DNA from: a virus
Reading direction: 5' to 3' (one strand)
Length of the DNA: 27,594 nt
IMG/VR virus record: IMGVR_UViG_3300006735_000178
Location: 1 to 27,594 of that record
Made by a program: the position numbers and the translations under genes. Of this stretch, positions 1-24,500 are shown in pieces. Under the pieces are notes generated by a model that saw nothing but the letters and a program-made list of their open reading frames with translations, was not told the DNA's origin and did no database searches. Position 1 is the first letter of the stretch. Every line of letters starts with the position of its first letter.

Positions 1-3000
1 ACTGAGTACGTTGTCTTTGTTGAAAAACGGCGGATTCAGACTTCCTCGATGCTGGTTTAATAATGCAGTACCGGGGAAAAAGGCCATCATAGCATTACAA
101 TCTAATAAAGAGAATGATGACAGCGTTTCGTTTGCGTTTTGTATACCAGTAACACCGTTAGGTCCGTTAGCGTATGGATGTGTATATTTGTCACTGTAGT
201 CATTTTGAGTGCCATCATTTACGTCAATAGTTACACCACTAAACCCGCCACCAAAGAATAAAGGAACCCAGTGGTCGCTGCTATCTCTACCTCCACGGAA
301 GAATACTTGAGGCCTAGAGTGAAGGCTACCTAACACACGAACACCAGCAGTAGTGAAGCATCTATGGTCAGCAAAGCGCTGTGCTACATCTGCTGCTGGT
401 GAACTTACTGTGCCAAAATCATCACTCTTAGTATCAGTAATAATATCTAATTTAGTTTGAGAATTTGCTCCATTTTCACTAGTAACAAGCGCTGTATCTT
501 GTCTATATGAAAACAAAGATTTGTTGCCAAATGAGGCTATCTTATCATAAGTGCCTCCGCTTCCGTCACTAATTGTAGTGCCTTCAGCACCAGCAGGTCT
601 TACAAAGTGCCATAGTTCGTTACCTCCATCGAGAACTACATCAGTAGCAGTAATTTCATCAATCTCAATAGTTGGGTTGTTTACCATAGGTAAAATATGG
701 TCTCCTGAATATGCTGTAAATCTAGCACCGTTTAGATTTTTACTCCATGTTTCAGTATTTACCGGCACATTACTAGAATCTACTAACACAGGAGACGGTG
801 TGTTACCATTAGACCCTCTACCTTTACTGATAATTTGCACGACAGTATGTGGTATGTAACCACATTCTGCTCTTAAACCAGCATCAATTTGAGCATCAGT
901 AGCGCAACGGTTACTACTACCTAAAGTTCCATTATGCTCTATTTTTTCAATATCACCATGTTCTACATGTGCTGCCTGAATAGCCATATCTCTATGAATA
1001 CTCGCTGAGAAGAAATTGGATATTGGTTGAATGTTTCGACTAGTATTAAACGCACGAATACGTATAGCGTCAGGTTCCACACCCCACTCACCTAATGTTC
1101 TACCATCAGCAGCAAAGAACTCAGTACAGTCAAAAGGTACTCCCTCTTCTATGTTCGGATTCCTAATATTAATAGCAGCAGTAACAGTAGCAGCAATAAT
1201 TTCATCAGTTACAAGCGTAGTCCAATTTAGACAAGATGAAATTAAACCCCTAATATATGTAGCAGTAGTGGGTGGGTCACCGAATACAGTTGGTGTGTTT
1301 GTTATCGCTGCGGCACCAGCGGCCTGACCTTGTGATGCGTTAAACGCAGTGCCTTCTATTCCGTAAAAGTAGAGTATTCCGCCGGGCTCTTCAGCCCGAT
1401 GTGTGTATGAATATACGTGCCCTATAGAGCCAGTTACATCACTATCAATAAAAGGGTCAGAAACCTGTATGAGCCCATTTTCTAATGGGAAGCCCATATA
1501 ACCCAATATATCAGGATGAGGGCATGAATTGTAAGGTGCTCTAGGTTGAACTTTGATAGTATTACCGGAGTATTGAATATCAACATCATAAGCAGCATTT
1601 ACAGAAGGAACCCCGTTCCAACGATTACCTCTCCAGCCTATTAAATCGGCATTTGTTGGGTTAGCAGGGAACCTACCAGTTGCATCTCCTAAGCCGTGCA
1701 TGTGATGACCTATTGTAAAACCACCTTGACCAACATCTCGGTCATCTATGTAAATTACAATTTCATCATCAAGCGTATCAGGTATTTGTGTTTCATCAAG
1801 TGTGAAAGTTTCGTCCATCGTTCTATAGACTATACGTATACCATGTCTGTTTCCTAAATGGTCTTTGAACTCAAAACCGTATAGGGGAGTGTTACCTATA
1901 CTATCATTAGAAATTTGATTAGATGGTATGTAACTACTATAGGCGGTGGGTAAAGAAGCATTTGATTGACTTTTATGAATGTCACCATATCTTTTAACAA
2001 ACCTCTTATCTCCTTTACGTCCGAATCCCCAATTACCGGCATCAGGTGCGAAGCCGGGTATACCTGCTGCTACTAAACCACCAAAGTTTACCCTACCCAC
2101 TGCTTGTGTACCTACTCTTAAGCCTTCAGTAAAACTAGTAGAATAACCTTCAATTTCTAATGACTCTACATTGACTGTATTATGAGATTGTCCTGACCCT
2201 GTGACCATTGAAATTGCTCTATTAACAGGGTCTGAGTTTTCGTCACCACGTTGAGCAAAGTCGTTAGTAGATTTTATTTGAGTACCTGTATCGTCGGGTA
2301 AAGTATACTGGCGTAAAGTTGTAATAGGAGCAAATGGTCTACCGTGCTTATTTAGTGGCATCGGCGCAGGGTGCATGTTTTCTCCACTTATCTCATCAGG
2401 CTGACACCAAAATGTTCTGAATCTACCACCATGACCAATAAGGAACTCAGGTTGATATGGAACTTGCCCTGTAGCGTTATCTAACCAAACACAGAAATTA
2501 CGACCAGTGGCACCCGGTACAGTGCTATGGATGATTATAGAATGACCTTGATTACCATTAATATCTTGAACTACTCTACCTAGATGTGCTCTAAAATACC
2601 CCATATGACTACCACTGTCTTGTGTATCTAGTGCTTTGTCTAAATCCCACCAAACCGCTGGGTCATGAGCAGAGCCAGTTTCGCCATTTACACTGTTAGT
2701 TCTAGCGTTCTTAGCACCGGCTTGATTGATTGTTCTTACAACTTCACGAGCAGCGGCCTCTACGTCAGTAACACCATCACGTGTTCCAATTAAACCACAG
2801 TCTATTGTTAGCCTTCTAGTAAAATCCATGTCAGTCCAGTGTTTTAAATGTTGAAGTCTATTCTCTTTCATATTTGATAAATCAAGAGTGTTAGAGCGTA
2901 TACCACGTAAAGCCAAAAACGCAGGTATGACTCTAGTGCCATCAGGTGTATCAAACAAAGTAGAAGGGTCACGTATAGAAGCCCCTGTTTTATCCTCACG

Positions 3001-6000
3001 GTGGACTGTTAATTTAACTACAAAGTCATCTAGGCTGGACCTTGTTTTACGACTATACTTATGTAACTCATTAGCCCAATAAGGTAATACTACTGCATCT
3101 TGAGTCCTAGGTAAAATACTGTCACCTATTGCTCTTTCAGACAATGGTCCCCCTGTGTGATAACCAGTATGTACAAAGTGACCATGTCCTTTACCATACT
3201 GAGTTAGTCTATTAGAAGTAGTAAGATTTTTTGAAACTCCTATGGGTGATACTATTACACGGTATTTACCACCTGATGCACCTGACTGTACTACTTCAAT
3301 TACATCACCATCAGCGTAACCTGAGCCACCATTGTTAACAGAAGGTAGTGCTAAAATTCCTCTATTAGTCCCAGCCCCGCCCGTTGTTGAGAGGTTAACA
3401 GTCAATCCTGTGCCACTTCCAGTGGTTGTAGTCGCTAAGCCTGTAGCAGGGCTATAACCAGTACCACCTTCTCTACCATTAGCACCAGCACCATTTTCAT
3501 AAAATGTTTTTAGGGCAGTAACTACTCCCTCAACAGATGCCTTCAAAGTAGATTTAGAATAATTATTAGCAATATCATGAGCATAAGCACTCTCCATAAA
3601 TCTTGAACGCATTGTAGGTCTAACATACTTATTTTGACTTGAAAAACCATTAGCAACGTCAATCTGAGTCATAAAGGCATTTTGACTAGCACCGTTGTAT
3701 TTTATGTTATGAGTGACTAAATCAATTTGGTCACCACCAGTAGCAATGTTATAACCAGTAGTATGCCTTTGGAAGCCGATTTCTGCTACTTTAGGACTGG
3801 TTTGGACTTGCATTTGTAAATCTTGGAAAGCGATGAACTCACGGTCATGAGCACAATCATAAAGCAAAACACGAGCATGGTCATCCCCTTTTAATGTAGG
3901 GTCAAGATACGCTACAATAGGAGGGTGCTCAATCATAGGCTCCCCAAATAACTCTTGGTAGTTTAATCGAATAGTTTCATTGACGTGTTGTGTGTAATTT
4001 TCAGCAGTCTCCCTACAAGTGTTACCGATTAAGAAGTTTTCAAGTGGTATACTATCACGAGCGTCAGTTGCTAAACTTCCCGCTCCACCGTTAAACCCAT
4101 TCCACACTAAAGCCTCATTAAATACACCACGACTTTTAGCAAATAAACCCTCTACTGCGTGAGGATTGTTATAGGTCATATTAGCCCATATAGTATCACC
4201 TTTACGTAAACCACCGGGTGCATATGGGAATAACCATGTTCTATTCAAAATTGCTTCATCATCGTTCCTCATTACGTCATGACATCCAACTCTAAGATAA
4301 ACTTTCTTTGCTACATCGCCTAGAGCACTATTTACTGCTGTCGCTACTGAACTAGTCATACTTCCATCTAAAGTAAGAACTGTATCAGATGAAGGTGTAC
4401 CTTGAGCATGACCATCAGCAATAACAGTCACTTTACCTAGAAACTTAACGCTGTCAATAGTAGAGCCGGATATGGTTTCTATTTCAGCATACACATAGTC
4501 ATCCTTCTGAACATTAAGACTGTTAGTATCTGCTTGTAATAAGCGCTCACTAGTTGTGTTTGTAACAGTTAAAGCAGTAGTAGTGACAGTAGGTGAGGCT
4601 TTGATAGTCCAAGGATGACGAGCAGTAGGAGGTCTAAATGTATCACTAATATTGAGAGTTCTCTCTAGGGCTGAACTATCTTTATCATGGTCAAAGCCAA
4701 ACATAAAACCTCTTTTCACTAACAAAGCCTCTTGGTCTAATATAAAATTAGCATGAGTAGAATCGTAATAATTGGGTAAAGCACCAGCCTTATTGAAAAT
4801 ATCTTCAACTATAATCGAATTTCTATAATCTTCAGGGCTAGTAGGTGTGCTGCTTAAATGTGAAAATGTAGCAGCAGCATCGCCCCAATAAATGAATCTT
4901 CTAATATCTCCGTTAGGTGATTTTGCCTCCAATAGATAATGGTAATCACCAGTCTCGTAGACTATATTGCCATTAGTATCAATGTTAGGTTGTATATTAG
5001 GGAACAGAGCAGCATCTTCTTCTGAGAAACTTAACACTACCAAACCAGTGAATGTCGTCCCATTCATAATAGGCTCTACACCTAAAATTTGACCGCTTGC
5101 TCTACGGGTTTGTATTCGAGCAGCATGAGGATTAGTGGTAGGACCGGCTTTAAACTCAACAGCGCTAACATATTGACGCAGACCGTAGTCTACATTCCCA
5201 CCTTGGGTTTTAACACTAGCAGCATCATGATAGTATTCACTCCTTCTTTCTATAGATGATGATGGGTTTAGGAAACTACCAACTAAGGGAATTAGACTTT
5301 CACTTTGATAGCCCCCTCCTACTAGTAACTGCATACCCGCTTCATGCGTTTCTAAGAACTTCTTAGAATGAGCATAAGTAGCATCTTCAAACTGTATGTA
5401 ACCATCACTAGAAGGGTCATTGTTGTAGATAATCCACTCACCATTTGACAAAAATGCTCTTTGATGTCGCTGTACGTTATCCACGTAGAAGTAAGACTTA
5501 CCTGAACTACCTATGTCAGCAGCAGGAAAGATGTCAGGATTACTAACGTACAGTTTGTAGTTACCTCCACTTGAAACTGCCTCATTTTGAATACTAGCAC
5601 TACGAGTATGATTATTTTGCGATAGAGAGAAAGCATAGGCAGCATGAGCACTGCGGTCACTAGGCGATACTTCTTGATAGCGTCTTCCTACAGGTGATGG
5701 ATTCCAAGTATGTGCTGTCATTGTAGGGTCAAGATGTAATTTCAAAGAGTTATCAGGGCCCGGTAATACACCGTTAGGAATATCCTTGAAGAACTGCTCA
5801 TTAAATAGAGGTATTTCTACTAAAGCACGAGTGCTTGCGAATTGCGTGCCTAACTGATAATCATGTGTAACAGAATCCATTGATTGAAACATTCTGTCAT
5901 TGACAGTAGACCCATCAGCGGTGGCATTCTCAACATAGAAGTTACCATCACCCATAATTACTTCGCCTACTGATGCGGTTACTATACTCCCACCACTAAC

Positions 6001-9000
6001 AGCGCCCGCTGTTGAACTAAGTCCTGTATCTCTAACCCATTCATAGAAATTAGCCACTTCAGAACCATCGCCTAATACAAACGTTCCACTCCCCACAGTA
6101 GAATCCTCGAAGAAAAATGCCACTCCATTTTTACTAGTGTATTCAGCACTGGCACCGTTTTTCAAAAACAAACGCCCCTTCTTTGGGAATGGATAAGTAC
6201 CCCAAGATTTCAAATCTATAGAGCCGTTATTCAAAGCACGTACTTCGATGTATTGAATTCGGTCAGCAGCGGTAGTGTCACGGTCTGTACGAACATTCAA
6301 AGCGTGACATGAGAAACCAAACCTTGTGTTATAAGGCAGCCTCGAAAGTGCGCTAGGGTCAAATGATGGATTTGTATCAAATGCTCCTTGACCTACGCCA
6401 CCTAGGGTAACAGTTACTACTGGAGCGTTAGGGTCTATTTCTTTGACTACGTGTGAATCGGGGCTACCTGACCCTATTTCGTCAACATTTCTATCAATGA
6501 TTGCTGAATTTATACCTACACATTTTACTCTAGTAAATCTTTCAGCGCCGTCTTCACCCTCTTCTTCAGCAATACTACGTAGTTTTGCTCTAGTCATTAA
6601 GTACATTATAGTAGCAAAATGAGAGTCATTTGCATTGTTTCCTACAGTTTTAATGTGTCTTAATTGAACAGTTCTATTACGGTCAGAAGGTTGCACGTAA
6701 ATGCGTTGTTGAATACCCGCTGTAGTTACAGCGTGATTATCTATAATGTCAAACATTTCATGAACAGGACCACTAGAAGCCGCTATTCCTATATCAAACT
6801 CACCAGCAGCGCCTGAACTAACTGAGGCTGAAGGTCTTGGTGATGAAGTAAAACTACCTGCGTTATTAGCCTCTATGATTAAATGATGAAAAACGGACTC
6901 GTGATTATCTTTGGTAGTGTGTGACGCTGCTATATTTTGCGGGGGTCTTCTAGGCTCACTAGACATGGTAGTGTAATTCTGAGGTGTATACCTTTCATCT
7001 AATTCAGAGTCGCTTTCAAAGCCCTCACTATTATCCCCAATCAAAGAGTGTGTAAATGATGCTTCCGCTAAATTACCATCAGTAGGAGCAGAAATCTCAA
7101 TGATACCACCCGGTGCATGTAGAGTCTTACCACTAGCCAAAGATGCTTCAATAGCGTCTATAACATATGTAGAACCTGTAAGTAAATGATTAGAGGCTGG
7201 TACAGTCTTTTCAACCATTAGCATTGGGTTTGTCTTACCCATACTAACACCTGTAAAATCAATTGCATTGTAATGAATTTCTATGTAAGACGCTAAATTA
7301 TACGAAGATAAATCAACTTCTAAAATAGCAACTCTGCTAGTCCTTGACGGTCTAAGATGATGTTTACGTATGTTATCATCTACATCATCTATAGTCCTAG
7401 GCACAGGTCCTTTCAAAACAAATGGCATTGGGTTGAAGCCTTCACCGCCGATTGCTATAAGTTTCCTAGATGGGTCTGCTAGACCATTATCCACAGAGTC
7501 TGAGACTGTGCTAGATGAGGTTGTAGAAACAATCCTACTCTGAGCAATATCCCGATAATAGTCTACTTTACTGTTTATGGGAAATTGCTTTTCAATTCCT
7601 TGGGATGCACCATCGAAGAATAACTCAACAATATCAGCATTACCAAATTGCTGGTCTAAGATTTCTTCATTTGCTCTTGGCATATTTCTAAGATAATGAT
7701 GACCTATGATATGATTAAGCACGTGTCTACCTGAGTGCCCTATCTGAAATGACTCGTCTAATGTACTGGGCCATGTAACAGCAAACGGATTGTTAGCATC
7801 ATTAGTTGTTGTAGCCATTCTACTAGAAAACATTATTCCGTGTTGCTCGAAATGCCCTTCGTCCAATACCATTTGCCCCGTTCTATCAATGAGTTGAGAT
7901 GCTAAATGAGGTGGTTGATATGGTTTACCTGAACCATTATCTAGCAAAAGGTCGGCACTAACCACCACAAAATAATCGTCACCTGTAGCACTACTACGTG
8001 AGTGTAATACTGGTCTAAGCCCGTCTCCATTAGTAGAGCCGTCAAAATCTAAGTGAATACTACTAACAAGCATGGCTCCTGTACTCACGTTAATATTGTG
8101 CAAGCGCACACGCTCGGGTGGTGATTGATTGGGCTTCTGAGTATCACGGTTTATTGCACCGGGATTAATCAGGAGGTTGTAAGGAACATGAGGTATAGAG
8201 CGAGTATTTTTAGTACCGGGTGTTGTTTTGTAATCAACTACACTGTAGTTACCTGATGAGTAGGGAGTGGTTGTAAAATCTACTGTTCCACTTGTTATAC
8301 TCTTCCCTGTCAATTTAGATGCTAATAAAGCAGCATCACTAGTGCTGATGGTTATTGCTGATAAATTACTAACAGAAGAAATAGATGCTATGTCATATGT
8401 TCCTTCTACTGGTTCGATAGGCTCTTCAAATCTAAACAATGCTAGTGTGTTATTATTCACCAATGCTGCATTACGAGTTATCATTTCATTTGAGTACACT
8501 GAACTTATGTGTATACTCTCAATAACACCACGAAACTGACCACCCGGACCTCCTATGTAGACGTGGTCATCTGATTCAGGTAGGAAGCAGCGACCTACTT
8601 TTTCTTCAGCCATTAATTCTCCATTTATGTGAAGAGATACTCTACCTTTGTTAACACTAGCAACAACATGAATTAGTGGTCTTTGATTGATGTTTAGATT
8701 AGTAGCATCGTCTTTAGAACCCACAAAGCGGTTGAAGGAATCTTCAAAGCCGTTATTAGTTGTACTAGGATATACTGTACCATTGTAACCGTTTGAGATT
8801 TCTGTTGCTGTAGAAATTATGACTTTTCTAAACCCAGTATCGGTTTGTAAGTTAACTTCAAAAGAGGCAGGGCCGGGTGTATCTACATTACCTAGTTTCA
8901 GACAAAATTGAGATGACTTTTGTAGTATCACACCACCACAGTCAGGAGTAACCCATGCTTCAATTGCTATCTCCTTACCCAACGCATCGCTAATTACACT

Positions 9001-9165
9001 GTTAACTCTAGCACCTTGAGAGGACTCGCTTATTATATCAGAAGCACTTCTTTCACCCGCAGAATTATCTCTACCTAACTTACTAAACACACCCTGTGGG
9101 ATAATAACGCTGTCACTTACACCATCAAAGAAAAGTGCGTGGTTGGATTGTAACATTATCGGCAT
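1..9165 (-). CDS. Giant tail-tip / receptor-binding protein, at least 3055 aa, 3' end outside window
   Basis: Starts at ATG 9165 with GAGGTG 5 bases upstream, and runs 3055 codons without a stop to the window edge; I read every in-frame codon. Residues about 5-250 form a LamG/concanavalin-like jelly roll (ALFFDGVSDSVIIP, EIAIEAWVTP, then LIHVVASVNKGRVSLHING and FRGVIESIHIS), often used for glycan binding. Two GGxGY segments (GGTGY 1900-1904, GGSGY 1946-1950) resemble motifs of marine phage fibres. His-rich stretches occur at 1994-2003 (HGHFVHTGYH) and 2487-2490 (HHMH). The rest is strand-rich, Ser/Asp/Asn-rich and unrecognised, with no membrane segment. It follows the distal tail gene and is the last gene of the module in view. 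Host recognition at the tail tip is inferred from size, order and the LamG domain. Confidence 0.8.
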   Translation of the reverse strand, partial: MPIMLQSNHALFFDGVSDSVIIPQGVFSKLGRDNSAGERSASDIISESSQGARVNSVISDALGKEIAIEAWVTPDCGGVILQKSSQFCLKLGNVDTPGPASFEVNLQTDTGFRKVIISTATEISNGYNGTVYPSTTNNGFEDSFNRFVGSKDDATNLNINQRPLIHVVASVNKGRVSLHINGELMAEEKVGRCFLPESDDHVYIGGPGGQFRGVIESIHISSVYSNEMITRNAALVNNNTLALFRFEEPIEPVEGTYDIASISSVSNLSAITISTSDAALLASKLTGKSITSGTVDFTTTPYSSGNYSVVDYKTTPGTKNTRSIPHVPYNLLINPGAINRDTQKPNQSPPERVRLHNINVSTGAMLVSSIHLDFDGSTNGDGLRPVLHSRSSATGDDYFVVVSADLLLDNGSGKPYQPPHLASQLIDRTGQMVLDEGHFEQHGIMFSSRMATTTNDANNPFAVTWPSTLDESFQIGHSGRHVLNHIIGHHYLRNMPRANEEILDQQFGNADIVELFFDGASQGIEKQFPINSKVDYYRDIAQSRIVSTTSSSTVSDSVDNGLADPSRKLIAIGGEGFNPMPFVLKGPVPRTIDDVDDNIRKHHLRPSRTSRVAILEVDLSSYNLASYIEIHYNAIDFTGVSMGKTNPMLMVEKTVPASNHLLTGSTYVIDAIEASLASGKTLHAPGGIIEISAPTDGNLAEASFTHSLIGDNSEGFESDSELDERYTPQNYTTMSSEPRRPPQNIAASHTTKDNHESVFHHLIIEANNAGSFTSSPRPSASVSSGAAGEFDIGIAASSGPVHEMFDIIDNHAVTTAGIQQRIYVQPSDRNRTVQLRHIKTVGNNANDSHFATIMYLMTRAKLRSIAEEEGEDGAERFTRVKCVGINSAIIDRNVDEIGSGSPDSHVVKEIDPNAPVVTVTLGGVGQGAFDTNPSFDPSALSRLPYNTRFGFSCHALNVRTDRDTTAADRIQYIEVRALNNGSIDLKSWGTYPFPKKGRLFLKNGASAEYTSKNGVAFFFEDSTVGSGTFVLGDGSEVANFYEWVRDTGLSSTAGAVSGGSIVTASVGEVIMGDGNFYVENATADGSTVNDRMFQSMDSVTHDYQLGTQFASTRALVEIPLFNEQFFKDIPNGVLPGPDNSLKLHLDPTMTAHTWNPSPVGRRYQEVSPSDRSAHAAYAFSLSQNNHTRSASIQNEAVSSGGNYKLYVSNPDIFPAADIGSSGKSYFYVDNVQRHQRAFLSNGEWIIYNNDPSSDGYIQFEDATYAHSKKFLETHEAGMQLLVGGGYQSESLIPLVGSFLNPSSSIERRSEYYHDAASVKTQGGNVDYGLRQYVSAVEFKAGPTTNPHAARIQTRRASGQILGVEPIMNGTTFTGLVVLSFSEEDAALFPNIQPNIDTNGNIVYETGDYHYLLEAKSPNGDIRRFIYWGDAAATFSHLSSTPTSPEDYRNSIIVEDIFNKAGALPNYYDSTHANFILDQEALLVKRGFMFGFDHDKDSSALERTLNISDTFRPPTARHPWTIKASPTVTTTALTVTNTTSERLLQADTNSLNVQKDDYVYAEIETISGSTIDSVKFLGKVTVIADGHAQGTPSSDTVLTLDGSMTSSVATAVNSALGDVAKKVYLRVGCHDVMRNDDEAILNRTWLFPYAPGGLRKGDTIWANMTYNNPHAVEGLFAKSRGVFNEALVWNGFNGGAGSLATDARDSIPLENFLIGNTCRETAENYTQHVNETIRLNYQELFGEPMIEHPPIVAYLDPTLKGDDHARVLLYDCAHDREFIAFQDLQMQVQTSPKVAEIGFQRHTTGYNIATGGDQIDLVTHNIKYNGASQNAFMTQIDVANGFSSQNKYVRPTMRSRFMESAYAHDIANNYSKSTLKASVEGVVTALKTFYENGAGANGREGGTGYSPATGLATTTTGSGTGLTVNLSTTGGAGTNRGILALPSVNNGGSGYADGDVIEVVQSGASGGKYRVIVSPIGVSKNLTTSNRLTQYGKGHGHFVHTGYHTGGPLSERAIGDSILPRTQDAVVLPYWANELHKYSRKTRSSLDDFVVKLTVHREDKTGASIRDPSTLFDTPDGTRVIPAFLALRGIRSNTLDLSNMKENRLQHLKHWTDMDFTRRLTIDCGLIGTRDGVTDVEAAAREVVRTINQAGAKNARTNSVNGETGSAHDPAVWWDLDKALDTQDSGSHMGYFRAHLGRVVQDINGNQGHSIIIHSTVPGATGRNFCVWLDNATGQVPYQPEFLIGHGGRFRTFWCQPDEISGENMHPAPMPLNKHGRPFAPITTLRQYTLPDDTGTQIKSTNDFAQRGDENSDPVNRAISMVTGSGQSHNTVNVESLEIEGYSTSFTEGLRVGTQAVGRVNFGGLVAAGIPGFAPDAGNWGFGRKGDKRFVKRYGDIHKSQSNASLPTAYSSYIPSNQISNDSIGNTPLYGFEFKDHLGNRHGIRIVYRTMDETFTLDETQIPDTLDDEIVIYIDDRDVGQGGFTIGHHMHGLGDATGRFPANPTNADLIGWRGNRWNGVPSVNAAYDVDIQYSGNTIKVQPRAPYNSCPHPDILGYMGFPLENGLIQVSDPFIDSDVTGSIGHVYSYTHRAEEPGGILYFYGIEGTAFNASQGQAAGAAAITNTPTVFGDPPTTATYIRGLISSCLNWTTLVTDEIIAATVTAAINIRNPNIEEGVPFDCTEFFAADGRTLGEWGVEPDAIRIRAFNTSRNIQPISNFFSASIHRDMAIQAAHVEHGDIEKIEHNGTLGSSNRCATDAQIDAGLRAECGYIPHTVVQIISKGRGSNGNTPSPVLVDSSNVPVNTETWSKNLNGARFTAYSGDHILPMVNNPTIEIDEITATDVVLDGGNELWHFVRPAGAEGTTISDGSGGTYDKIASFGNKSLFSYRQDTALVTSENGANSQTKLDIITDTKSDDFGTVSSPAADVAQRFADHRCFTTAGVRVLGSLHSRPQVFFRGGRDSSDHWVPLFFGGGFSGVTIDVNDGTQNDYSDKYTHPYANGPNGVTGIQNANETLSSFSLLDCNAMMAFFPGTALLNQHRGSLNPPFFNKDNVLS

Positions 9166-11872: not shown

Positions 11873-12195
11873 TTACCTACTGTCTCAGGGCTAGGTAAAA
11901 CAGCGGCTATACGCTGACCAATGTGACCCTTCAAGTCTAATAATTCAGAAGTAGATAATTCGGGTTCAGTGCGAACTATCCAGTTAGTGAAAGCGTACTT
12001 CCAATATGCTTCTAGGTCGAGAGACATTTCGCCATTTTTACCAATAACAAGCAACTCTTGGGCAGATTTCTGAACATCAAAGAAAGAAATATCCCTAGCG
12101 TAAACAACCATGACTGTGTCATCGTCTACGGGTATTTCGTGTCTCTTTTCATTCTGCTGTCTCAGTAGTATTTCCTTGTTCGGTAGTTTCGGCAT
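11836..12195 (-). CDS. Tail assembly chaperone, short form (gpG-like)
   Basis: 119 residues from ATG at 12195, with GGTGAG 4 bases upstream; an ATG at 12207 lacks a site. The protein has a strand-rich part (HEIPVDDDTVMVVYARDISF) and then helices (YWKYAFTNWIVRTEPELST, ELLDLKGHIGQRIAAVL). Position between tail tube and tape measure, size and the adjoining -1 frame ORF all match the lambda G / GT arrangement. The chaperone binds the tape measure and tube subunits during tail assembly and is not in the virion. The frame ends at TAG 11836. Confidence 0.65.
   Translation of the reverse strand: MPKLPNKEILLRQQNEKRHEIPVDDDTVMVVYARDISFFDVQKSAQELLVIGKNGEMSLDLEAYWKYAFTNWIVRTEPELSTSELLDLKGHIGQRIAAVLPSPETVGKMLQGDFTKGGA
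11857..11863 (-). other. Candidate -1 frameshift site
   Basis: GGGGGAT read as CAG GGG GAT in the chaperone frame. The P-site GGG codon can re-pair perfectly after a -1 slip, but the A-site codon cannot, so this is not a canonical heptamer. Only the stretch between the -1 frame TAA at 11873 and the zero-frame TAG at 11836 can hold the slip. GAAAGG at about 11846-11851 is a second candidate. A small hairpin (stem TGAGA/TCTCA, loop GTTT) follows at 11818-11831. Confidence 0.4.
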
Positions 12196-12652
12196 TTGTC
12201 TCACCATTGGTCACAGCCGCTTCTTCAGCGGGGGTGTCCGACTCAACTTCAGCAGCCGCTTCAGCGGGGGCTTCAGTCTCAGTCGTGGACTCGGATATAC
12301 CCTCATCTTCACGCTTCAAGCGTAGACTCAACTGGGCTTTTGTACCGGAGACTGCTAAGCCTCGGTTTTTGCACTCCTCTCGAAGTTCAGCAAGTGTCAT
12401 AGCATCATAGGATAGGTCTGATGGGAAGTCTTCTGTATTGGGTATATCTTCAACAGATTCAACCTCAACAACTTCTTCCACAGGTGCAGGTACTAGGGAA
12501 TTAATCGCTATCTGAATGCTCTTGCGTGAGCGGTGTTGTGCTGCTAGCATACTGACTTCAGGTTTTACTCCTAGAGTGTTACCATACCAAATAGCAAAAT
12601 CCTCATTTGACAATCGGCGGTATTTGTATGTACATTCTGATGGAGTCGGCAT
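12149..12652 (-). CDS. SAP-domain protein with acidic C-terminal tail
   Basis: 167 residues from ATG at 12652, with GAGGTGA upstream. Residues 1-55 form a small basic domain (YKYRRLSNEDFAIWYG, HRSRKSIQIAI). Residues 80-115 (YDAMTLAELREECKNRGLAV, then SGTKAQLSLRLKRE) match the SAP motif, a two-helix DNA-binding fold. The rest is Glu/Ala/Thr-rich and disordered. It sits between the tail tube and the chaperone, where a DNA-binding domain is not expected. Its end overlaps the next gene by 47 bases in another frame, the longest overlap of the window. It may be an extra chaperone or a tail-associated protein; the role is unknown. Confidence 0.7.
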   Translation of the reverse strand: MPTPSECTYKYRRLSNEDFAIWYGNTLGVKPEVSMLAAQHRSRKSIQIAINSLVPAPVEEVVEVESVEDIPNTEDFPSDLSYDAMTLAELREECKNRGLAVSGTKAQLSLRLKREDEGISESTTETEAPAEAAAEVESDTPAEEAAVTNGETNAETTEQGNTTETAE

Positions 12653-17741: not shown

Positions 17742-18062
17742 TCAAGAGCGGCGACCTATTGCTATGAAAGTACCACCTTGGTTAGAAGTATCGAACCCAG
17801 CAGCGTTAACGTTGATAGTTGTACTACCGCTTGCTACTGTTGCGAACTCCGGTGAAACGAAAGGTGCTTTGTCACTTCCATCTGCTGCTGAACCACTTTC
17901 TACTTCGTTATCACCGCTTACGGCGAAAGGTGTTACTGCTGCAAAGTCAATACTTGCTAACAAACCACTCAAATCTATTGATGAGTCGCTTGTACCATAA
18001 GTTCCTGTTACTATCATTCTGTCACCGAAATAACTCGGTCTGTTGTCTATGCTTACTGCCAT
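17742..18062 (-). CDS. Small beta-rich virion protein, second decoration candidate
   Basis: 106 residues, ATG at 18062 overlapping the previous stop (TAATG), with GGAGATGA 6 bases upstream. The sequence is Ser/Gly/Asp/Thr-rich, with short strand-like segments (RMIVTGTYG, STTINVNAAGF, GGTFIAIGRR) and no Cys. The leader closely resembles that of the capsid gene, which hints at strong translation. No family is recognised. Position among head genes suggests a decoration or head-surface protein. Confidence 0.65.
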   Translation of the reverse strand: MAVSIDNRPSYFGDRMIVTGTYGTSDSSIDLSGLLASIDFAAVTPFAVSGDNEVESGSAADGSDKAPFVSPEFATVASGSTTINVNAAGFDTSNQGGTFIAIGRRS

Positions 18063-18466
18063 TATTCTTCATCTCCTTCTTGAGTTTCTTCTTCTTGAGA
18101 TTCTGCTACAAGTTCTTCTGTTTCTGCTACCCCATCAGGGCTCATTACAGTAGCAACTAACTCAAGTAATTGAGTCTTAGTAGCGTAACCTCTTGGTTTA
18201 ATATTATATGCTGCTAGCCATTTGCTAATGTCTTTGCGACTCCAGCCTTCGTCAGGTATACCGTCTCCGCCTTTGTCAACACTTCGCTCTTCAGCGCTTT
18301 CAGGAGTCCAACCTTCAATTCTGAAATCTTCCTCACCTAGTCTAACGCCATAGTGGTCAAGCCATGCTGAAGTTACTTCAACTGGTCTGTTTTGCTCCCA
18401 GTCCTTCATTCTACTATCAGTTGCTCTCCTTACATGAGAGCGCCCGATGTATGTTACTATAGGCAC
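18062..18466 (-). CDS. HeH/SAP-type domain protein with acidic tail
   Basis: 134 residues from GTG at 18466, which has GAGGTG 6 bases upstream; the earlier in-frame GTG at 18475 is part of that site. The N-terminal 60 residues (PIVTYIGRSHVRRA, then AWLDHYGVRL) form a small unknown domain. Residues 75-108 (WSRKDISKWLAAYNIKPRG, then ATKTQLLELVA) match the helix-extended loop-helix pattern of HeH/SAP domains, known for DNA binding and also found in phage structural proteins. The last 25 residues are almost all Glu/Asp/Gln. It lies between two candidate decoration genes and overlaps the next start by one base. It could be a head completion or internal DNA-contacting protein; the exact role is unknown. 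Confidence 0.7.
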   Translation of the reverse strand: MPIVTYIGRSHVRRATDSRMKDWEQNRPVEVTSAWLDHYGVRLGEEDFRIEGWTPESAEERSVDKGGDGIPDEGWSRKDISKWLAAYNIKPRGYATKTQLLELVATVMSPDGVAETEELVAESQEEETQEGDEE

Positions 18467-18476
18467 GTTAAGCACC

Positions 18477-18908: not shown

Positions 18909-20084
18909 TCACTTTAGGTCACGAATACTCCCTTGTGCTCGGAAGAAGGTAGTCCATACCTCTCCCATTGTTCGGTAAAGTCCTTCTTGACCTAGTCTGT
19001 TGATTGCGAATGGGTCACCAGTTTCGATTCCTGACTCAAAGTATTGAGTTGGTATTGCTGTAGAGAAGTATAGGTAGTCAGTGTCTAGGAAGTACATCCT
19101 ACTTAGACCGTCCTTTTCTACGTCTTTGGAAGGAATGATTGGAACACCGTTGTAGGTTGCTACGATGAAACCTGCTTCGATACCCGGTACACCCTTAACA
19201 CCGTTGTAGGTAGGTGTAACTCTCTTCTCTTCCATGAATCTTTGCTGAGCCTGTAGCAATTGCTGAAGTCTCATTAGAGTGTCATATCCAGTTAGGATAA
19301 CCTTAGGGTTACCACCAAGTTCCCACATTCGCTGGAACACATCATCTAGTTGGTCTAGTGACATAGTACGACGGTTGCCGGATGCTCTGTCACTACCACA
19401 GTTTACAACAGCGTTAGCCCAAGAGTTTGCACTTCGGTCAATGCTGTAGATGTCAAGGTCAGTAGCGCCACAGTGGTCTGTTCCTGCTGAAGCACCAGTT
19501 TCCATAGATGTTAGTCCACCGGATGCACCACCGTCGTTTGCGGTGATTCTGTCTAGTGATTCAAAGTTGTTACCTGCAACAGTCTCAGAGTCTGTTAGAA
19601 GCATCTTGTTAACCATTTCAGCGTGGTGCTTACCCATTTCTTCTTTGAGAACTGAGCGCATGTCGCCTAGTCCATCGTCCTTGTCAGCAAGGAAGACAGC
19701 AACTTCGCTTACATCGAATGAGTGAGCGATGGTCTTTGGCTTTGCTGCAACGTGCTGGAATACAGGCTTAACAGTTTCAGGCAATGTGCCGTTTTCTGCA
19801 ATTCCACCGTGTACTACACCGCTGTTAGGTTTCTCAGTGATAACTCTCCATCCGCTGCGGTCCCATGGGCGCTTTGGAAGGATTGAGAATGCGTTAAATT
19901 CTTGGTTCAACTGTGACCATACTTTGCGACCATAGATTGCTTGGTATGTTCCCGCTGTGGTAGACAGCATAGGGCTGTCTGCTTTGAGTAATTCGCTACC
20001 GGAGTAGGAGTAACCCATTGAGTTACCTGCTCCGTAGTAATACCTTTCCATGTCAGTGACTGTTCTTACGTAATTTCGTGCCAT
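18909..20084 (-). CDS. Major capsid protein, HK97 fold
   Basis: Shell subunit, 391 residues, the usual size for HK97-type capsid proteins. The call rests on position directly after the protease-scaffold gene and on sequence style. The N-terminal arm is Tyr/Gly-rich. A region near 60-130 (LPKRPW..., then GTLPETVKPVFQHVAAKPKT) reads like the extended loop and start of the P domain. A helix follows with MRSVLKEEMGKHHAEMVNKMLL, then SLDQLDDVF and a strand-rich C-terminal part with KVILTGYDTLMRL and GVPIIPSKDV. ATG at 20084 has GGAGATGA 6 bases upstream. There is no obvious separate N-terminal delta domain, which fits the scaffold being supplied by the upstream gene. I do not recognise the exact virus family. 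Confidence 0.85.
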   Translation of the reverse strand: MARNYVRTVTDMERYYYGAGNSMGYSYSGSELLKADSPMLSTTAGTYQAIYGRKVWSQLNQEFNAFSILPKRPWDRSGWRVITEKPNSGVVHGGIAENGTLPETVKPVFQHVAAKPKTIAHSFDVSEVAVFLADKDDGLGDMRSVLKEEMGKHHAEMVNKMLLTDSETVAGNNFESLDRITANDGGASGGLTSMETGASAGTDHCGATDLDIYSIDRSANSWANAVVNCGSDRASGNRRTMSLDQLDDVFQRMWELGGNPKVILTGYDTLMRLQQLLQAQQRFMEEKRVTPTYNGVKGVPGIEAGFIVATYNGVPIIPSKDVEKDGLSRMYFLDTDYLYFSTAIPTQYFESGIETGDPFAINRLGQEGLYRTMGEVWTTFFRAQGSIRDLK

Positions 20085-20121: not shown

Positions 20122-20970
20122 TCACTCGTCTCGGAATAATCCTCCAGCGAGTTGGTGAACTTCATCCCATGACATATTACCGAGGTCAGCCGTGGATGGG
20201 ACCTCTATAGCAGGGGATGCGGATTTTGCGATTGTTGTGGACTCTGCTGAGCCAATGTTGTCAATTCTATCGTTAAGTGAATCTAAAGCCTTCATTACTT
20301 CATCAAGAGGCCCACGAGCATCAAATGCTTGTGCTTGTGCTTTTGAAATTTCTTCAGTTCTCTCATGAGCGTAGCGTGACTCAAAGTTGACTTCCATACC
20401 TTTGCGAAGTTCTTCTTCTTGCTTTGCTGCCTTGAAGACTTCGTATGCGTATTCTAGTGATGCTGGGTCTACAGATGTTACAAAGTCACTTTTGTTGACT
20501 TCTCCACCACCGCTGCCTAGTCCAGCACGCTGGATAGCGTTAGTAGATGGTGAACCACCTTCTTGTGCACGGCCCTTTACTTGACCTGCAAAGTAATCTG
20601 CACCGTCTCCAATAGATTCAGGTGTGGAACCAAGGTTTGCCTTAGAGATACCATCAAAGTGCTGTCTTGCACCATCTGTGTCTACACCAGCGGATTTCAA
20701 AGTGTTCTCCATCCAGTCTAGGTACTCAGCAGATATAACGTCAGAGTATTCAGATTTTTTCTTCTCATCTTTCTCATCTTTCTCATCATCGTCAGCCTTG
20801 TATGCTTTCTCAGGCATCTCTTCGTCTTTCTTTTCTTCTTTCTTGTCGCCTTTCTTGTTTTTCATGTGTTCTTTGAGTCCGGGTGGCATTTCACCTTTCT
20901 CCATAGAGTCCAATCTTCCTTCTAGGCGCTCAAGAACGCTGTTCATTTGCTCCATAACATCGTCGCTCAT
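20122..20970 (-). CDS. Probable separate scaffold protein from an internal start (282 aa)
   Basis: In-frame ATG at codon 177 of the protease gene, preceded by GGAGATGA at 20976-20983 with a 5-base spacer. This is the same eight-base site, at nearly the same distance, that precedes the major capsid gene. Initiation here would give a 282-residue product lacking the protease domain: a coiled coil, a charged linker and a helical C-terminal part. Lambda C/Nu3 is the well-known precedent for a nested scaffold gene. The site is visible in the sequence; its use is inferred. Confidence 0.55.
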   Translation of the reverse strand: MSDDVMEQMNSVLERLEGRLDSMEKGEMPPGLKEHMKNKKGDKKEEKKDEEMPEKAYKADDDEKDEKDEKKKSEYSDVISAEYLDWMENTLKSAGVDTDGARQHFDGISKANLGSTPESIGDGADYFAGQVKGRAQEGGSPSTNAIQRAGLGSGGGEVNKSDFVTSVDPASLEYAYEVFKAAKQEEELRKGMEVNFESRYAHERTEEISKAQAQAFDARGPLDEVMKALDSLNDRIDNIGSAESTTIAKSASPAIEVPSTADLGNMSWDEVHQLAGGLFRDE

Positions 20971-21498
20971 TTTAGTCATCTCCATTTTTTTGTCTTCTTT
21001 TAGGATTTTAAATGTTGCTTCAGGGTTTATTCCTTTTTCGCAGATAGTGATTTCGTGAAGTTCTAGTTTACTGATTTCTTGATAATTGCCGTGACTATTA
21101 TCATGTTTCCGAACTCGCTTGAATGCTTGTCCTCCGATGCTGAATCCCGCTAAATTCCCCTTTCTGACCTCTGCTGCCACTTCTCGTGCCTTTTCGATGT
21201 CATTCCTAAGTTGAACTACGACGAACATTCCTGCATCGTCAACTTCGCTTTTCCATAACCTCCCTTCACTATCTGTGTATTGTGGAATGACTTCTCCTAC
21301 CTGAATGTTAGAGTGCGCTAGTTGCACATTTCTATACTTCGGGTCTGCCATATATTTCTTGAAAGCATCTTTCAAGGCTGGCCGAGTAATCAAATCCCCC
21401 TGCTTGTCAACCAGTTCAACACTAGCATATCCTGCGACCACAAGGTCGTTGCTCCCTTTGAGCAGGGAAATGCTGTCTTGTCGAGTTCTGAGCAACAC
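20122..21498 (-). CDS. Prohead maturation protease fused to scaffold region
   Basis: Serine protease that cleaves scaffold and shell proteins inside the assembling prohead (HK97 gp4-like, S78 type). The start is GTG at 21498, 5-7 bases after an AAGGAGGGG site. Residues 1-165 form the protease: VDKQGDLI near 30-37, His62 in the QLAHSN segment, Ser120 in LAGFSIGG, and LHEITICEKGINPEA near 147-161, which holds a candidate third residue (Glu149). These match the order of the family's catalytic segments. Residues 177-250 are a coiled coil followed by a Lys/Glu/Asp-rich low-complexity stretch, and 255-458 are mostly helical, as expected for a scaffold or delta domain. The major capsid gene follows after 37 bases. 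The same frame contains a strong internal start at residue 177 (separate entry). Which residue completes the catalytic triad is an inference. Confidence 0.85.
   Translation of the reverse strand: MLLRTRQDSISLLKGSNDLVVAGYASVELVDKQGDLITRPALKDAFKKYMADPKYRNVQLAHSNIQVGEVIPQYTDSEGRLWKSEVDDAGMFVVVQLRNDIEKAREVAAEVRKGNLAGFSIGGQAFKRVRKHDNSHGNYQEISKLELHEITICEKGINPEATFKILKEDKKMEMTKMSDDVMEQMNSVLERLEGRLDSMEKGEMPPGLKEHMKNKKGDKKEEKKDEEMPEKAYKADDDEKDEKDEKKKSEYSDVISAEYLDWMENTLKSAGVDTDGARQHFDGISKANLGSTPESIGDGADYFAGQVKGRAQEGGSPSTNAIQRAGLGSGGGEVNKSDFVTSVDPASLEYAYEVFKAAKQEEELRKGMEVNFESRYAHERTEEISKAQAQAFDARGPLDEVMKALDSLNDRIDNIGSAESTTIAKSASPAIEVPSTADLGNMSWDEVHQLAGGLFRDE
20976..20983 (-). promoter_or_regulatory. Internal ribosome-binding site for the scaffold
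   Basis: GGAGATGA on the minus strand, 5 bases before the ATG at 20970, in the middle of the protease-scaffold coding region. The match to the site of the capsid gene is exact. It also encodes part of MEMTK, so some chance contribution from codon needs is possible. Confidence 0.55.
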
Positions 21499-21542: not shown

Positions 21543-24500
21543 TTACTCATTTTCCGATTCTGCTTCATAAACGTCAGACTCCTCTTTATTTTTGCGTTTT
21601 AATCGCTTGTTACGAACGGCTGGGTATTCTTCCTCCGGGTCTTCCGTTGGACGCTCCAACATATCCCAATCAGGTAATGATTGTTCACTGTTCAATGATG
21701 TTGGTCCTCTAGGAGACTCAGTGCCGTCCCCAACATCTATACCAAATCCTTGAGCACTAGTTCTACCTGACATCTTTTCCTTTGCTAGTTTATCTACTAA
21801 GTCAGCAATACGAGCCAGTGTCTTTACCATTTGATTTGGTTTTAGAATGTTCATTTCATCATCTTCATCTATGATACCAGCAGATTCTTTTTCAGATTCT
21901 TTACGATGCTCAGGGTCTGCCATGCTTCTAGCATTATTTTCTACATCAGGTTTTACACCCTTAATCATCAAAGATGCTGCTTGATTCCATAGAGGGCGTA
22001 GGCTTTCAGCCAATAGTATAGGATATTCATTCTTCTGTAATTCAGCCAATGTAGAATAAGGGGAATGAGCCCACATACCATGAGAGTTTCGCTCCATCTT
22101 GTAAACTACATCGTCTACTTCAGGGAATGATAGAGTAAGTTTATTGTGACTGACATCTAGTGAAAACTGGATTGGTAGCACTGGATGTGATTTTGTGAGT
22201 AACGAAAGCGTTTCAAGTGAGGCTGGTGCATCTTCTGCTTCTGATACTATCCTAGAGGTAGCAACATCGTAGAGTGTTTTACCATTCTTATTCCTAGATT
22301 TCACACCTGATACTTTAACGTTAACGAAGTCTCCTTCTTCAAACGGTTTAGGACTCTTTACAGTACCTACGTCAAGATAAGATTGTCCTTCGTATTCTAC
22401 TCCTCTATTCCCAAAGCCTTCTGCATCTAAAGGCCCAGCCCCTAAACGATATGTGAACGGACCTTTACCTCTAACATCAAGGATGATGAGAGTCACTTGT
22501 TTATCAGGTCTTAGTAAGAACCACTTAGGATGTCTTCTTTCACCACGCATGTATGTAGATGTAGCGTCACGAAGAAGCATTCTCTCTCCTGACTCTTTCA
22601 AACTCTCAACAACTCCATTCAAGCCCTCAGTGTCTGTTAGGCGTAAATTATGAGGGCCCGGCACCATGATATGCTCATGACTGTCGAATTGTCCTCTCAA
22701 TACTTTCAGTCTCTCTCTAACAATCATGTCGGCGATATTAGAGTCATCATACTCAATTATGTCTACGATGTGAATTTCATCATCACTCTTAACCGCATCT
22801 AACATCCAGTTTTTATCATTCAAAGCCCTGAATTGTTTTCTATCTTCAGGTGATAAAGCAACATCACCGTTCTTATCATATGCTGTGATTCTACTACCCT
22901 TTTTACGAACTATGAATCTCTCAGAGGCAGGGAGAATAGAAACTACCCATTCTCCACTAAAGCCCCGTAGTGCTTCAAAGTCTTTGATTGAAAAAATGCG
23001 GTGCATTGGGAGAATTGGTAAGGGCTTACCATCTTCACTTTTTAGTAAAACATCGGGGTCCATCAAAGCCATTAATGACTTACCTATATCCTCAGGGTCG
23101 TCACTTTCAGCCTTACCCCCCAATAAGATATTTGGTTGTTGAGACAAAGGCCCTCTTTGGAACTCACCGGGTAAAGCCATAACTTGTTGAACTAGTTCTT
23201 CACCATGTATATCATTTAATGACTCTTCACTAATTGAATGTAAAACTTGCTGACTTGCTCCATTAGTTCCAGCAACAAACTCATTACCATTCCATTCTAT
23301 ACCAATTGTAGGGGACATAGGATAGCCCATTTCCATACGTCCTGATGTGAAGTAATCTCCAACTGCTGCCCCTTTCAAAGAAGTAGCAGGGTGTATTTCT
23401 CTACCACCCGCTCTGTTTAGTTTAGTAACATCATTCATGCTATCATCTATCGTAGCGTTAGCAATTAACTCTCTATCAACTAGATTAGGGTCTACTGCAA
23501 TTACATTGTGAATTAGACTCTTGACTTTACTCTTATTGTGACTTTTATCCGCTACATCACCCGTATCGTAATATGTTAAGCCATATTTTTCTGCCTCATT
23601 AGCATAAGGACCACTCATAAGTCTAGGAATAACACCTAATTTACCGAGATAATTGGTTTTGAACCATTCATTCAAACCTTTAGTTTCTTTACCACTTTCA
23701 GATGTTCTACCAGTAGATGCTTTCTCTCTAGCCATCTGTTTGTAACGCTGAACCACTGGTTCGTTATCATAAGCCTCTTCAAAAGTAGTCATGTGATTAC
23801 TGTGGAGTTCGTGCTCTAATGAAATATCTTGACCTCTAGGGTGAAAACCCATACCAGTGCTAAGTAATGACCCATGCGTTAGAGCACGTAGACCTCCCTC
23901 TTCAGGTGCACTGTCTATGATTTTCTGAGCGAGTTCTTTGTGTTGCTCATATAATTCATCATCTTCATCGTGGTTAAAACCAAGAGCAGTCATAACTTCT
24001 TGAACGCTCATGTCTCTAGTAATATCAACACCATTTTGTATAGCGCTTATCATCATATTACGATGAGGAACTATTGTATCTCCTACTATTTGGGATGCAG
24101 TAGCACTAGCAGAAGGCATTTTTTCTGTGTCTATCCCCGGTCCATGTGTTGTAAGACCATGAACATCATGTGGGACTAACATCAACATTCTATTTGCATC
24201 ATAGAAAAGACGTGATGTGTTAGAAAGGAATTTTAGTTTGTTGGTAGGGTCAAACGCCTCAGGGTCTGCTTTCTCCATAATCGGCTTTAGAGTCATAGCC
24301 ATTTGAGTAATTGCTGCTAAATCGCCTTCTCCCTTAATGTCGAACTGGTCATGACCTAGAGTAAATCCGCTACCTGAAGCCATAGTAGTCCCACCGACCT
24401 CCTCAAGATTATGTAAGTTAGACCTAGCCGCCATTAGTTCTTCCATTAAACCTTCAGGCATTTCATCTTCTGCTCCAGCATACATACTTACTTGGTCTTC

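What the first reader, a model, noticed from the sequence alone, without database searches (positions are those of the whole stretch)
22200..23060. Inactive DNA-ligase-like nucleotidyltransferase plus OB fold inside a giant structural-module protein
Residues about 1315-1580 of the 1808-residue protein keep the motif order I, III, IIIa, IV, V and OB fold of ATP-dependent ligases, but the KxDGxR motif reads GFSGEW (Lys to Gly, Asp to Ser, Arg to Trp) and LDGE reads LDAVK. A ligase fold without its catalytic Lys, fused to 1300 unknown residues and encoded next to the prohead protease, suggests reuse as a DNA-end or nick-binding module in the virion or packaging machine. I know of no described example.
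Basis: partly seen in the sequence, partly recalled or inferred. Interest (0 to 1): 0.8.

Follow-up and report, generated by a model that had tools for sequence, protein, structure and literature searches.

The report
Dead DNA ligase in virus head protein
A very abundant group of ocean viruses of archaea carries, inside a giant protein encoded among its shell-building genes, a DNA-ligase domain that has lost every residue needed to join DNA yet is the most strictly preserved part of the protein; so the 'DNA ligase' credited to such viruses is, in the genomes examined here, probably not an enzyme but a reused part, perhaps a DNA holder.

Summary
The ligase call is right, the motif I call is not. 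Residues ~1313-1595 of the 1808-aa protein (window 22185-23033, minus strand) are homologous to the core of archaeal ATP-dependent DNA ligases: profile-profile E 4.9e-9 (score 70.8; best of 30 shuffles 27.2), AlphaFold pLDDT 84, top Foldseek hits all ATP ligases, archaeal first. GFSGEW is a family-specific motif; true motif I lies eight residues on (S-I-L-P-A-S-E-R). In 106 distinct relatives the catalytic Lys is never present (W/L/F/Y/I); the motif III Glu is I/V in nearly all, the first motif V Lys is L/V/M/I, the motif IV Lys is Arg. Yet dN/dS (0.035-0.074) is lower than in the large N-terminal part (0.10-0.30). Gene order terL-HNH-portal-...-giant-protease-MCP is kept in every locus checked. 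In near-complete records (~90-109 kb) no other ligase family is detected, though 8 of 9 carry DNA polymerase B. Published magrovirus work lists an 'ATP-dependent DNA ligase' as a replication gene, once noted beside the prohead protease: most likely this gene. Likeliest function: non-catalytic DNA binding in head assembly or packaging (inferred, not shown). Invariant LxK motifs like that of the capsid protein flank the domain and may be protease sites.

The parts
21543..26969 (-). giant protein P0001, 1808 aa (GTG start; homologues start ATG at the same place), containing the ligase-like domain
   Evidence: ORF; full-length homologues of ~1800-1980 aa in other contigs
22185..23033 (-). inactive ligase-like core, residues ~1313-1595 (nucleotidyltransferase part ~1313-1498, OB-like part ~1499-1580)
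   Evidence: hhalign E 4.9e-9 to archaeal ligases, Pfam DNA_ligase_A_M over the gathering score in relatives, AF2 model pLDDT 84, Foldseek 4eq5 E 4e-12
22947..22964 (-). GFSGEW, residues 1336-1341: conserved family motif wrongly read as ligase motif I
   Evidence: aligns upstream of motif I
22917..22934 (-). true motif I position (KxDGxR -> L1346-P-A-S-E-R1351); catalytic Lys replaced
   Evidence: 0 Lys among 106 aligned residues (W68 L13 F12 Y12 I1); Arg in all 106
22791..22802 (-). motif III (xDGE -> L1390-D-A-V1393); metal/ribose Glu lost
   Evidence: 0 of 107 sequences have Glu at 1393 (I75 V24 M3 T2 A2 L1)
22743..22766 (-). motif IIIa region (FDIxYxDG -> VDIIEYDD, 1402-1409)
22569..22586 (-). 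motif IV (EGxMxK -> E1462-R-M-L-L-R1467); Lys -> Arg
   Evidence: Arg in 106 of 107
22509..22559 (-). STYMRGERRHPKWFLLR, residues 1471-1487: near-invariant block; motif V LKxK -> F-L1485-L-R1487; R1479 aligns with the nick-sensing Arg443 of ligase IV
   Evidence: roles from PMC6035275
23037..23048 (-). L-L-K-S (1308-1311) just before the domain: possible prohead-protease site
   Evidence: K1310 in all 106 sequences with a residue there; resembles the invariant LLKAD near the capsid protein N-terminus; function inferred
22188..22202 (-). L-L-T-K-S (1590-1594) just after the domain: possible prohead-protease site
   Evidence: K1593 in 107 of 107, next residue S/A in 97; function inferred
20122..21498 (-). 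prohead serine protease (neighbour)
   Evidence: Pfam Peptidase_S78 2.3e-9; PHROG head maturation protease
18909..20084 (-). HK97-type major capsid protein (neighbour)
   Evidence: PHROG 24667 major head protein 1.2e-58; 34% to HVTV-1 capsid protein
26983..27594 (-). Cys-rich head-cassette protein upstream of the giant gene (cut by the window end)

Best explanation
The region is the nucleotidyltransferase-OB core of an archaeal-type ATP-dependent DNA ligase that a marine archaeal tailed-virus (magrovirus) lineage captured, built into a giant head-cassette protein and inactivated before the sampled viruses diverged. Shown here: homology, loss of the catalytic positions, strong purifying selection, fixed place in the head/packaging gene cassette, absence of any other detectable ligase in near-complete records. 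Inferred: the ATP pocket has become hydrophobic (Lys -> W/L/F/Y, motif III Glu -> mostly I/V, motif V Lys -> L/V/M/I), so it cannot adenylate, while some DNA-phosphate contacts stay basic (R1479 invariant; motif V second Lys -> Arg); it therefore most likely acts as a non-catalytic DNA-binding module (duplex, end or nick) during prohead assembly and packaging, or as part of a protein carried in the head, possibly cut free by the prohead protease at the Lys motifs on both sides. Sub-confidences: dead ligase-derived domain 0.95; head-module protein 0.9; DNA binding as its main job 0.5; in the mature virion 0.5; freed by the protease 0.35.
For: Sequence: profile of 15 relatives hits Thermococcus ligases 4eq5 (2.8e-5) and 3rr5 (3.1e-4); Pfam DNA_ligase_A_M in 15 of 15 members, best 8e-7, over the gathering score in 12 of 18 records; hhalign against 18 archaeal ligases E 4.9e-9, against four phage ligases 2.4e-7, with shuffle, reversal and other-segment controls. 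Structure: pLDDT 84, listed top PDB matches all ATP DNA ligases, archaeal first. Inactivity: residue counts over 106 relatives; the archaeal ligases keep KxDGxR and motif IV, and nearly all keep motifs III, V and VI where the pattern search found them. Constraint: dN/dS 0.035-0.074 in the domain against 0.10-0.30 over residues 1-1300. Module: same gene order in all 30 loci as far as each contig reaches. Only ligase-like sequence found; PolB present in 8 of 9. DNA-contact residue: R1479 corresponds to ligase IV Arg443, which senses the nick 5'-phosphate.
Against: The second nick-sensing Arg (ligase IV Arg293) is replaced (E83 S9 K6 T5 of 107); the domain has about zero net charge, -2, which neither favours nor excludes DNA binding; the ligase DNA-binding domain is absent. 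No proteomics, no binding data. The family-invariant patches (PMHRIF, LRGF, STYM..RHPKW, Y[RQ]LGAGP) could equally be a protein-protein interface. The OB part rests on the model and Foldseek, not on sequence profiles.
Confidence: 0.55

Rival explanations
1. Pure protein scaffold: the dead ligase core is kept only as a rigid fold that docks onto portal, protease or capsid proteins, with no DNA binding.
For: ATP pocket filled with hydrophobics; invariant motifs not typical of ligases (STYM[KR]GE-x-RHPKW, Y[RQ]LGAGP); neutral domain; one nick-sensing Arg lost.
Against: R1479 and basic residues at the motif IV and second motif V Lys positions are kept almost everywhere; OB-type folds commonly bind nucleic acid.
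Confidence: 0.3
2. Head-packaged effector: the giant protein is injected with the genome and the domain acts in the new host cell, occupying the same gene slot as HVTV-1 gp115 (zeta-toxin-like kinase plus ADP-ribosyltransferase domains).
For: HVTV-1 has a 1313-aa multi-enzyme protein between its MuF-like gene and its protease; capsid proteins are related.
Against: No detectable homology between gp115 and any part of the giant protein; the ligase-like part is not an enzyme.
Confidence: 0.12
3. Still a working, non-standard ligase, as the published replisome annotation implies; in many relatives a Lys sits one residue upstream (SKWYDGKR).
For: Papers list an ATP-dependent DNA ligase as a replication gene (PMC12999244, PMC10768690, PMC10160649); the offset Lys is found in 65 of 107 sequences.
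Against: The offset Lys is missing from the rest, including the window and its close relatives; motif III Glu and the first motif V Lys are absent from all 107; motif VI pattern in only 6 of 50; the gene lies in the head cassette, not with PolB.
Confidence: 0.03

Closest known systems
Archaeal ATP-dependent DNA ligase (Lig1 type; Thermococcus sibiricus 4eq5, Pyrococcus furiosus 2cfm)
   Same: nucleotidyltransferase core, P-I-[RK]-P-M lead-in, motif order, ER helix, S-x-Y-x-x-G-x-R-x-x-K-W block, OB-like follow-up
   Different: no catalytic Lys, no motif III Glu, motif IV Lys -> Arg, motif V Lys -> hydrophobic/Arg, no conserved RxDK motif VI, no N-terminal DNA-binding domain, short motif III-IIIa loop, embedded in a giant protein
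'ATP-dependent DNA ligase' of magroviruses (Magrovirales; PMC7318539, PMC12999244, PMC10768690, PMC10160649)
   Same: most likely the same gene: next to the prohead protease in a group A genome
   Different: described as a replication enzyme; here shown to lack its catalytic residues and to be part of a giant head-cassette protein (the published genomes themselves were not held and not tested)
Snurportin-1 m3G-cap-binding domain (nucleotidyltransferase fold reused as a binder; role from general knowledge)
   Same: a nucleotidyltransferase-type fold without transferase function; weak profile hits here (Pfam 0.008)
   Different: eukaryotic RNA-cap binder; much weaker similarity than to DNA ligases
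Yeast ligase IV catalytic mutants (PMC3694833)
   Same: a ligase that cannot adenylate still binds breaks and acts there
   Different: laboratory mutants in repair, not a natural dead family in a virus
HVTV-1 gp115 (Druskaviridae)
   Same: giant multi-domain protein in the same gene slot before the prohead protease of a related virus
   Different: zeta-toxin-like and ADP-ribosyltransferase domains; no detectable sequence relation

Membership tests
ATP-dependent DNA ligase (active enzyme) | nucleotidyltransferase fold | tested here: met
ATP-dependent DNA ligase (active enzyme) | OB domain after the transferase domain | tested here: inconclusive
   predicted by AF2 and spanned by Foldseek matches, not reached by profile alignment
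ATP-dependent DNA ligase (active enzyme) | motif I nucleophile Lys (KxDG) | tested here: not met
   0 Lys at the aligned position in the window protein and 106 relatives
ATP-dependent DNA ligase (active enzyme) | motif III Glu | tested here: not met
   0 of 107
ATP-dependent DNA ligase (active enzyme) | motif IV Lys | tested here: not met
   Arg in 106 of 107, Cys in one
ATP-dependent DNA ligase (active enzyme) | motif V Lys-x-Lys | tested here: not met
   L/V/M/I and R/Q
ATP-dependent DNA ligase (active enzyme) | motif VI RxDK in the OB domain | tested here: not met
   pattern in 6 of 50 only, against 16 of 18 archaeal ligases
ATP-dependent DNA ligase (active enzyme) | adenylation and nick sealing | not testable with these tools
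   needs biochemistry
mRNA capping enzyme / snurportin | closest similarity to capping-type transferases | tested here: not met
   DNA ligases score better in sequence and fold searches
Magrovirales (virus assignment) | HVTV-like capsid protein, ~90-110 kb genome, PolB, ligase gene beside the protease | tested here: met
   PMC7318539, PMC12999244; no reference magrovirus genome was held for direct comparison
Virion protein | presence in purified particles | not testable with these tools
   no proteomics; only fixed synteny in the head cassette
Prohead protease substrate | cleavage at conserved sites | not testable with these tools
   invariant K1310 and K1593 resembling the capsid protein LLKAD

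The most novel reading that the evidence does not exclude
A DNA ligase captured by an archaeal tailed-virus lineage was turned into a dead DNA-end or nick-binding part of the prohead, made inside a giant precursor and cut free by the prohead protease at paired Lys sites, so that packaging or ejection uses a former repair enzyme as a DNA handle, and viruses said to be self-sufficient for replication depend on the host ligase.
Probability: 0.2. Interest if true: 0.85.

Novelty: new variant of a known kind. Interest (0 to 1): 0.62.

Why it matters
[quoted passage not shown] In the near-complete genomes examined the only ligase-like gene is this catalytically dead, head-module protein, so that reading needs revision and such viruses would need the host ligase. 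It is also a clean natural case of a DNA-joining enzyme recruited as a non-catalytic part of a virus head module, with at least 255 encoding stretches in public viral contigs to test it on.

Tried and rejected
Single-sequence searches: no ligase hit for the whole protein in Pfam, PHROGs or PDB, so sensitivity had to come from relatives. First AF2 job on seven close sequences was poor (pLDDT 49) and was not used. Phage record collection: no homologue of the giant protein or domain. Homology to HVTV-1 gp112-gp119: none. A remnant of the ligase DNA-binding domain upstream: none. Known domains in the other ~1500 residues: no PDB profile match below 0.01 in five segments (best hits helical chance matches such as Cry6Aa at 0.012). 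Motif I Arg as evidence for nick binding: dropped, since it contacts the AMP ribose (PMC6698739). NAD ligase, RNA ligase and full-length Lig1 models as other sources of ligase in the genomes: none over threshold (the sub-threshold TIGR00574 matches lie in the giant protein). A general K[AS] enrichment in head proteins is not clear-cut, so the cleavage idea rests on the two invariant flanks and the capsid-protein likeness.

Full report
What was checked. The window is a 27.6-kb virus record. The minus-strand ORF 21543-26969 encodes 1808 aa. Alone, the whole protein hits no ligase in Pfam, PHROGs or PDB.

Homologues. Viral contigs hold full-length relatives (97 to ~43% identity in the domain); the last search reported 255 encoding stretches, of which the best 80 were kept. 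The full-length proteins are about 1800-1980 aa (several apparent shorter ones are open at a contig end, and one, in L119, is 543 aa). The ligase-like part is much better conserved than the rest: in 34 sequences, blocks within residues 1400-1560 have ~0.68-0.77 agreement per column against 0.08-0.56 in the first 1300, and dN/dS against six relatives is 0.035-0.074 there against 0.10-0.30 over residues 1-1300; the C-terminal part is also well constrained in several comparisons.

It is a ligase core. A profile of 7 relatives hit Thermococcus sibiricus ligase 4eq5 at 2.7e-4, a profile of 15 at 2.8e-5 with other archaeal ligases following. All 15 members match Pfam DNA_ligase_A_M, best 8e-7, and in 12 of 18 records the match passes the curated cut-off. 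I fetched archaeal ligases (the 18 used all read K-x-D-G-x-R) and six phage ligases (the four with the motif were used): hhalign of the 50-sequence family gives E 4.9e-9 and score 70.8 with the archaeal set, 2.4e-7 with the phage set. Thirty column shuffles reach at most 27.2, the reversed alignment 19.8, other segments of the giant protein at most 22.5. AlphaFold2 with 50 sequences gives pLDDT 84.3, and all 50 listed PDB matches are DNA ligases, archaeal ones first, over ~350 columns that include the OB domain. TM-scores are modest (0.54 for the best) and the OB part is not reached by sequence profiles, so the OB call rests on the model.

Where motif I really is. Both HMMER and hhalign align K-Y-D-G-A-R with L1346-P-A-S-E-R1351. 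Relatives make this plain: SAFYDGKR, THYYDGQR, SKWYDGKR. So the Lys is replaced by Leu in the window, DG is degenerate here but intact in many relatives, and the motif Arg is retained in all 106 sequences with a residue there. GFSGEW is a separate conserved family motif.

It is dead across the family. In the window protein plus 106 distinct relatives: motif I Lys position W68 L13 F12 Y12 I1 (one gap), never Lys; motif III Glu position I75 V24 M3 T2 A2 L1, never Glu; motif IV Lys -> Arg 106 and Cys 1; motif V Lys1 -> L73 V21 M10 I3; Lys2 -> R104 Q3. The motif VI pattern occurs in 6 of 50 against 16 of 18 archaeal ligases. In working ligases these residues hold the adenine, ribose and alpha-phosphate (PMC6698739). 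Sixty-five sequences have a Lys one residue too early (SKWYDGKR); it is absent from the others, and all 107 lack the motif III and V partners, so a displaced nucleophile is unlikely. More than 50 further relatives reported by the searches were not inspected.

What is kept. D1403, E1419-R1420, S-T-Y (1471-1473), G1476, R1479-H-P-K-W1483, G1510, G1512, D1533, G1535, T1536 are invariant in 107 sequences. R1479 lies six residues before the motif V first position, as does Arg443 of human ligase IV, which contacts the nick 5'-phosphate; its partner Arg293 corresponds to 1366, which is E/S/K/T here (PMC6035275). So half of the nick sensor remains. The domain is neutral (-2) in an otherwise acidic protein.

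Context. In all 30 loci checked the order is terL - HNH-like protein - portal - two small genes - Cys-rich protein - giant gene - prohead protease - capsid protein, as far as each contig reaches (annotation). The capsid protein is 34% identical to those of haloarchaeal Druskaviridae. Nine records of 90-109 kb have no NAD-dependent ligase or RNA ligase model match and no other ATP-ligase match, while 8 of 9 have family B DNA polymerase. This fits Magrovirales (90-110 kb; PMC12999244). HVTV-1 has a 1313-aa protein with zeta-toxin and ADP-ribosyltransferase domains in the matching slot, without detectable homology to the giant protein.

Literature. Published profiles list an ATP-dependent DNA ligase in the magrovirus replication set. 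[quoted passage not shown] I found no paper in the held library that notes its inactivity; the original 2017 magrovirus paper was not held.

Possible processing. The capsid proteins share an invariant G-S-E-L-L-K-A-D near the N-terminus (K and A in 19 of 19), and HVTV-1 has M-S-K-A-D at the matching place. The giant protein has L-L-K-S-E, with that Lys in all 106 sequences with a residue there, immediately before the ligase domain, and L-L-[TA]-K-S, with Lys in 107 of 107, immediately after it. From general knowledge, HK97 protease cuts its capsid protein after a Lys; that these are cleavage sites is my inference, and the overall K[AS] survey is not decisive.

Verdict. A real, strongly conserved, catalytically dead ligase domain in a head-cassette protein. 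DNA binding is the likeliest role but is not shown; a protein scaffold is the main rival.

Noticed in passing
L006:5536-6762 (+) and its homologues in the other loci: A ~408-aa protein with an HNH-type endonuclease match (PHROG 5046, 4.7e-9) and a GFLDADGY stretch resembling LAGLIDADG sits between terL and portal wherever the contig reaches that far; a nuclease in the packaging cassette could make the nicks or ends that the dead ligase binds.
   Followed up: partly
window 20122-21498 (C-terminus) and L006:8888-9211: The protease and a small upstream protein end in a similar motif, M-[ST]-W-[DE]-E-[VI]-H, possibly a shared head-assembly or scaffold signal.
   Followed up: no
window 12149-12652 and 18062-18475 (-): Two small structural-module proteins contain stretches that look like SAP DNA-binding motifs (LREECKNRGLAVSGTKAQLSLRL; ISKWLAAYNIKPRGYATKTQLLELV); by eye only.
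   Followed up: no
   Followed up: no
L059:6539-10480 (HVTV-1 gp115): The sequence WVSDPTEQAPNRWT.T.TGEHRYQETKP occurs twice between the domains of this multi-enzyme protein, like a linker or processing repeat.
   Followed up: no
window 1-9165 (-): A 3055-aa ORF running off the window start with a weak Laminin_G_3 match near its N-terminus; likely a very large tail or fibre protein.
   Followed up: no
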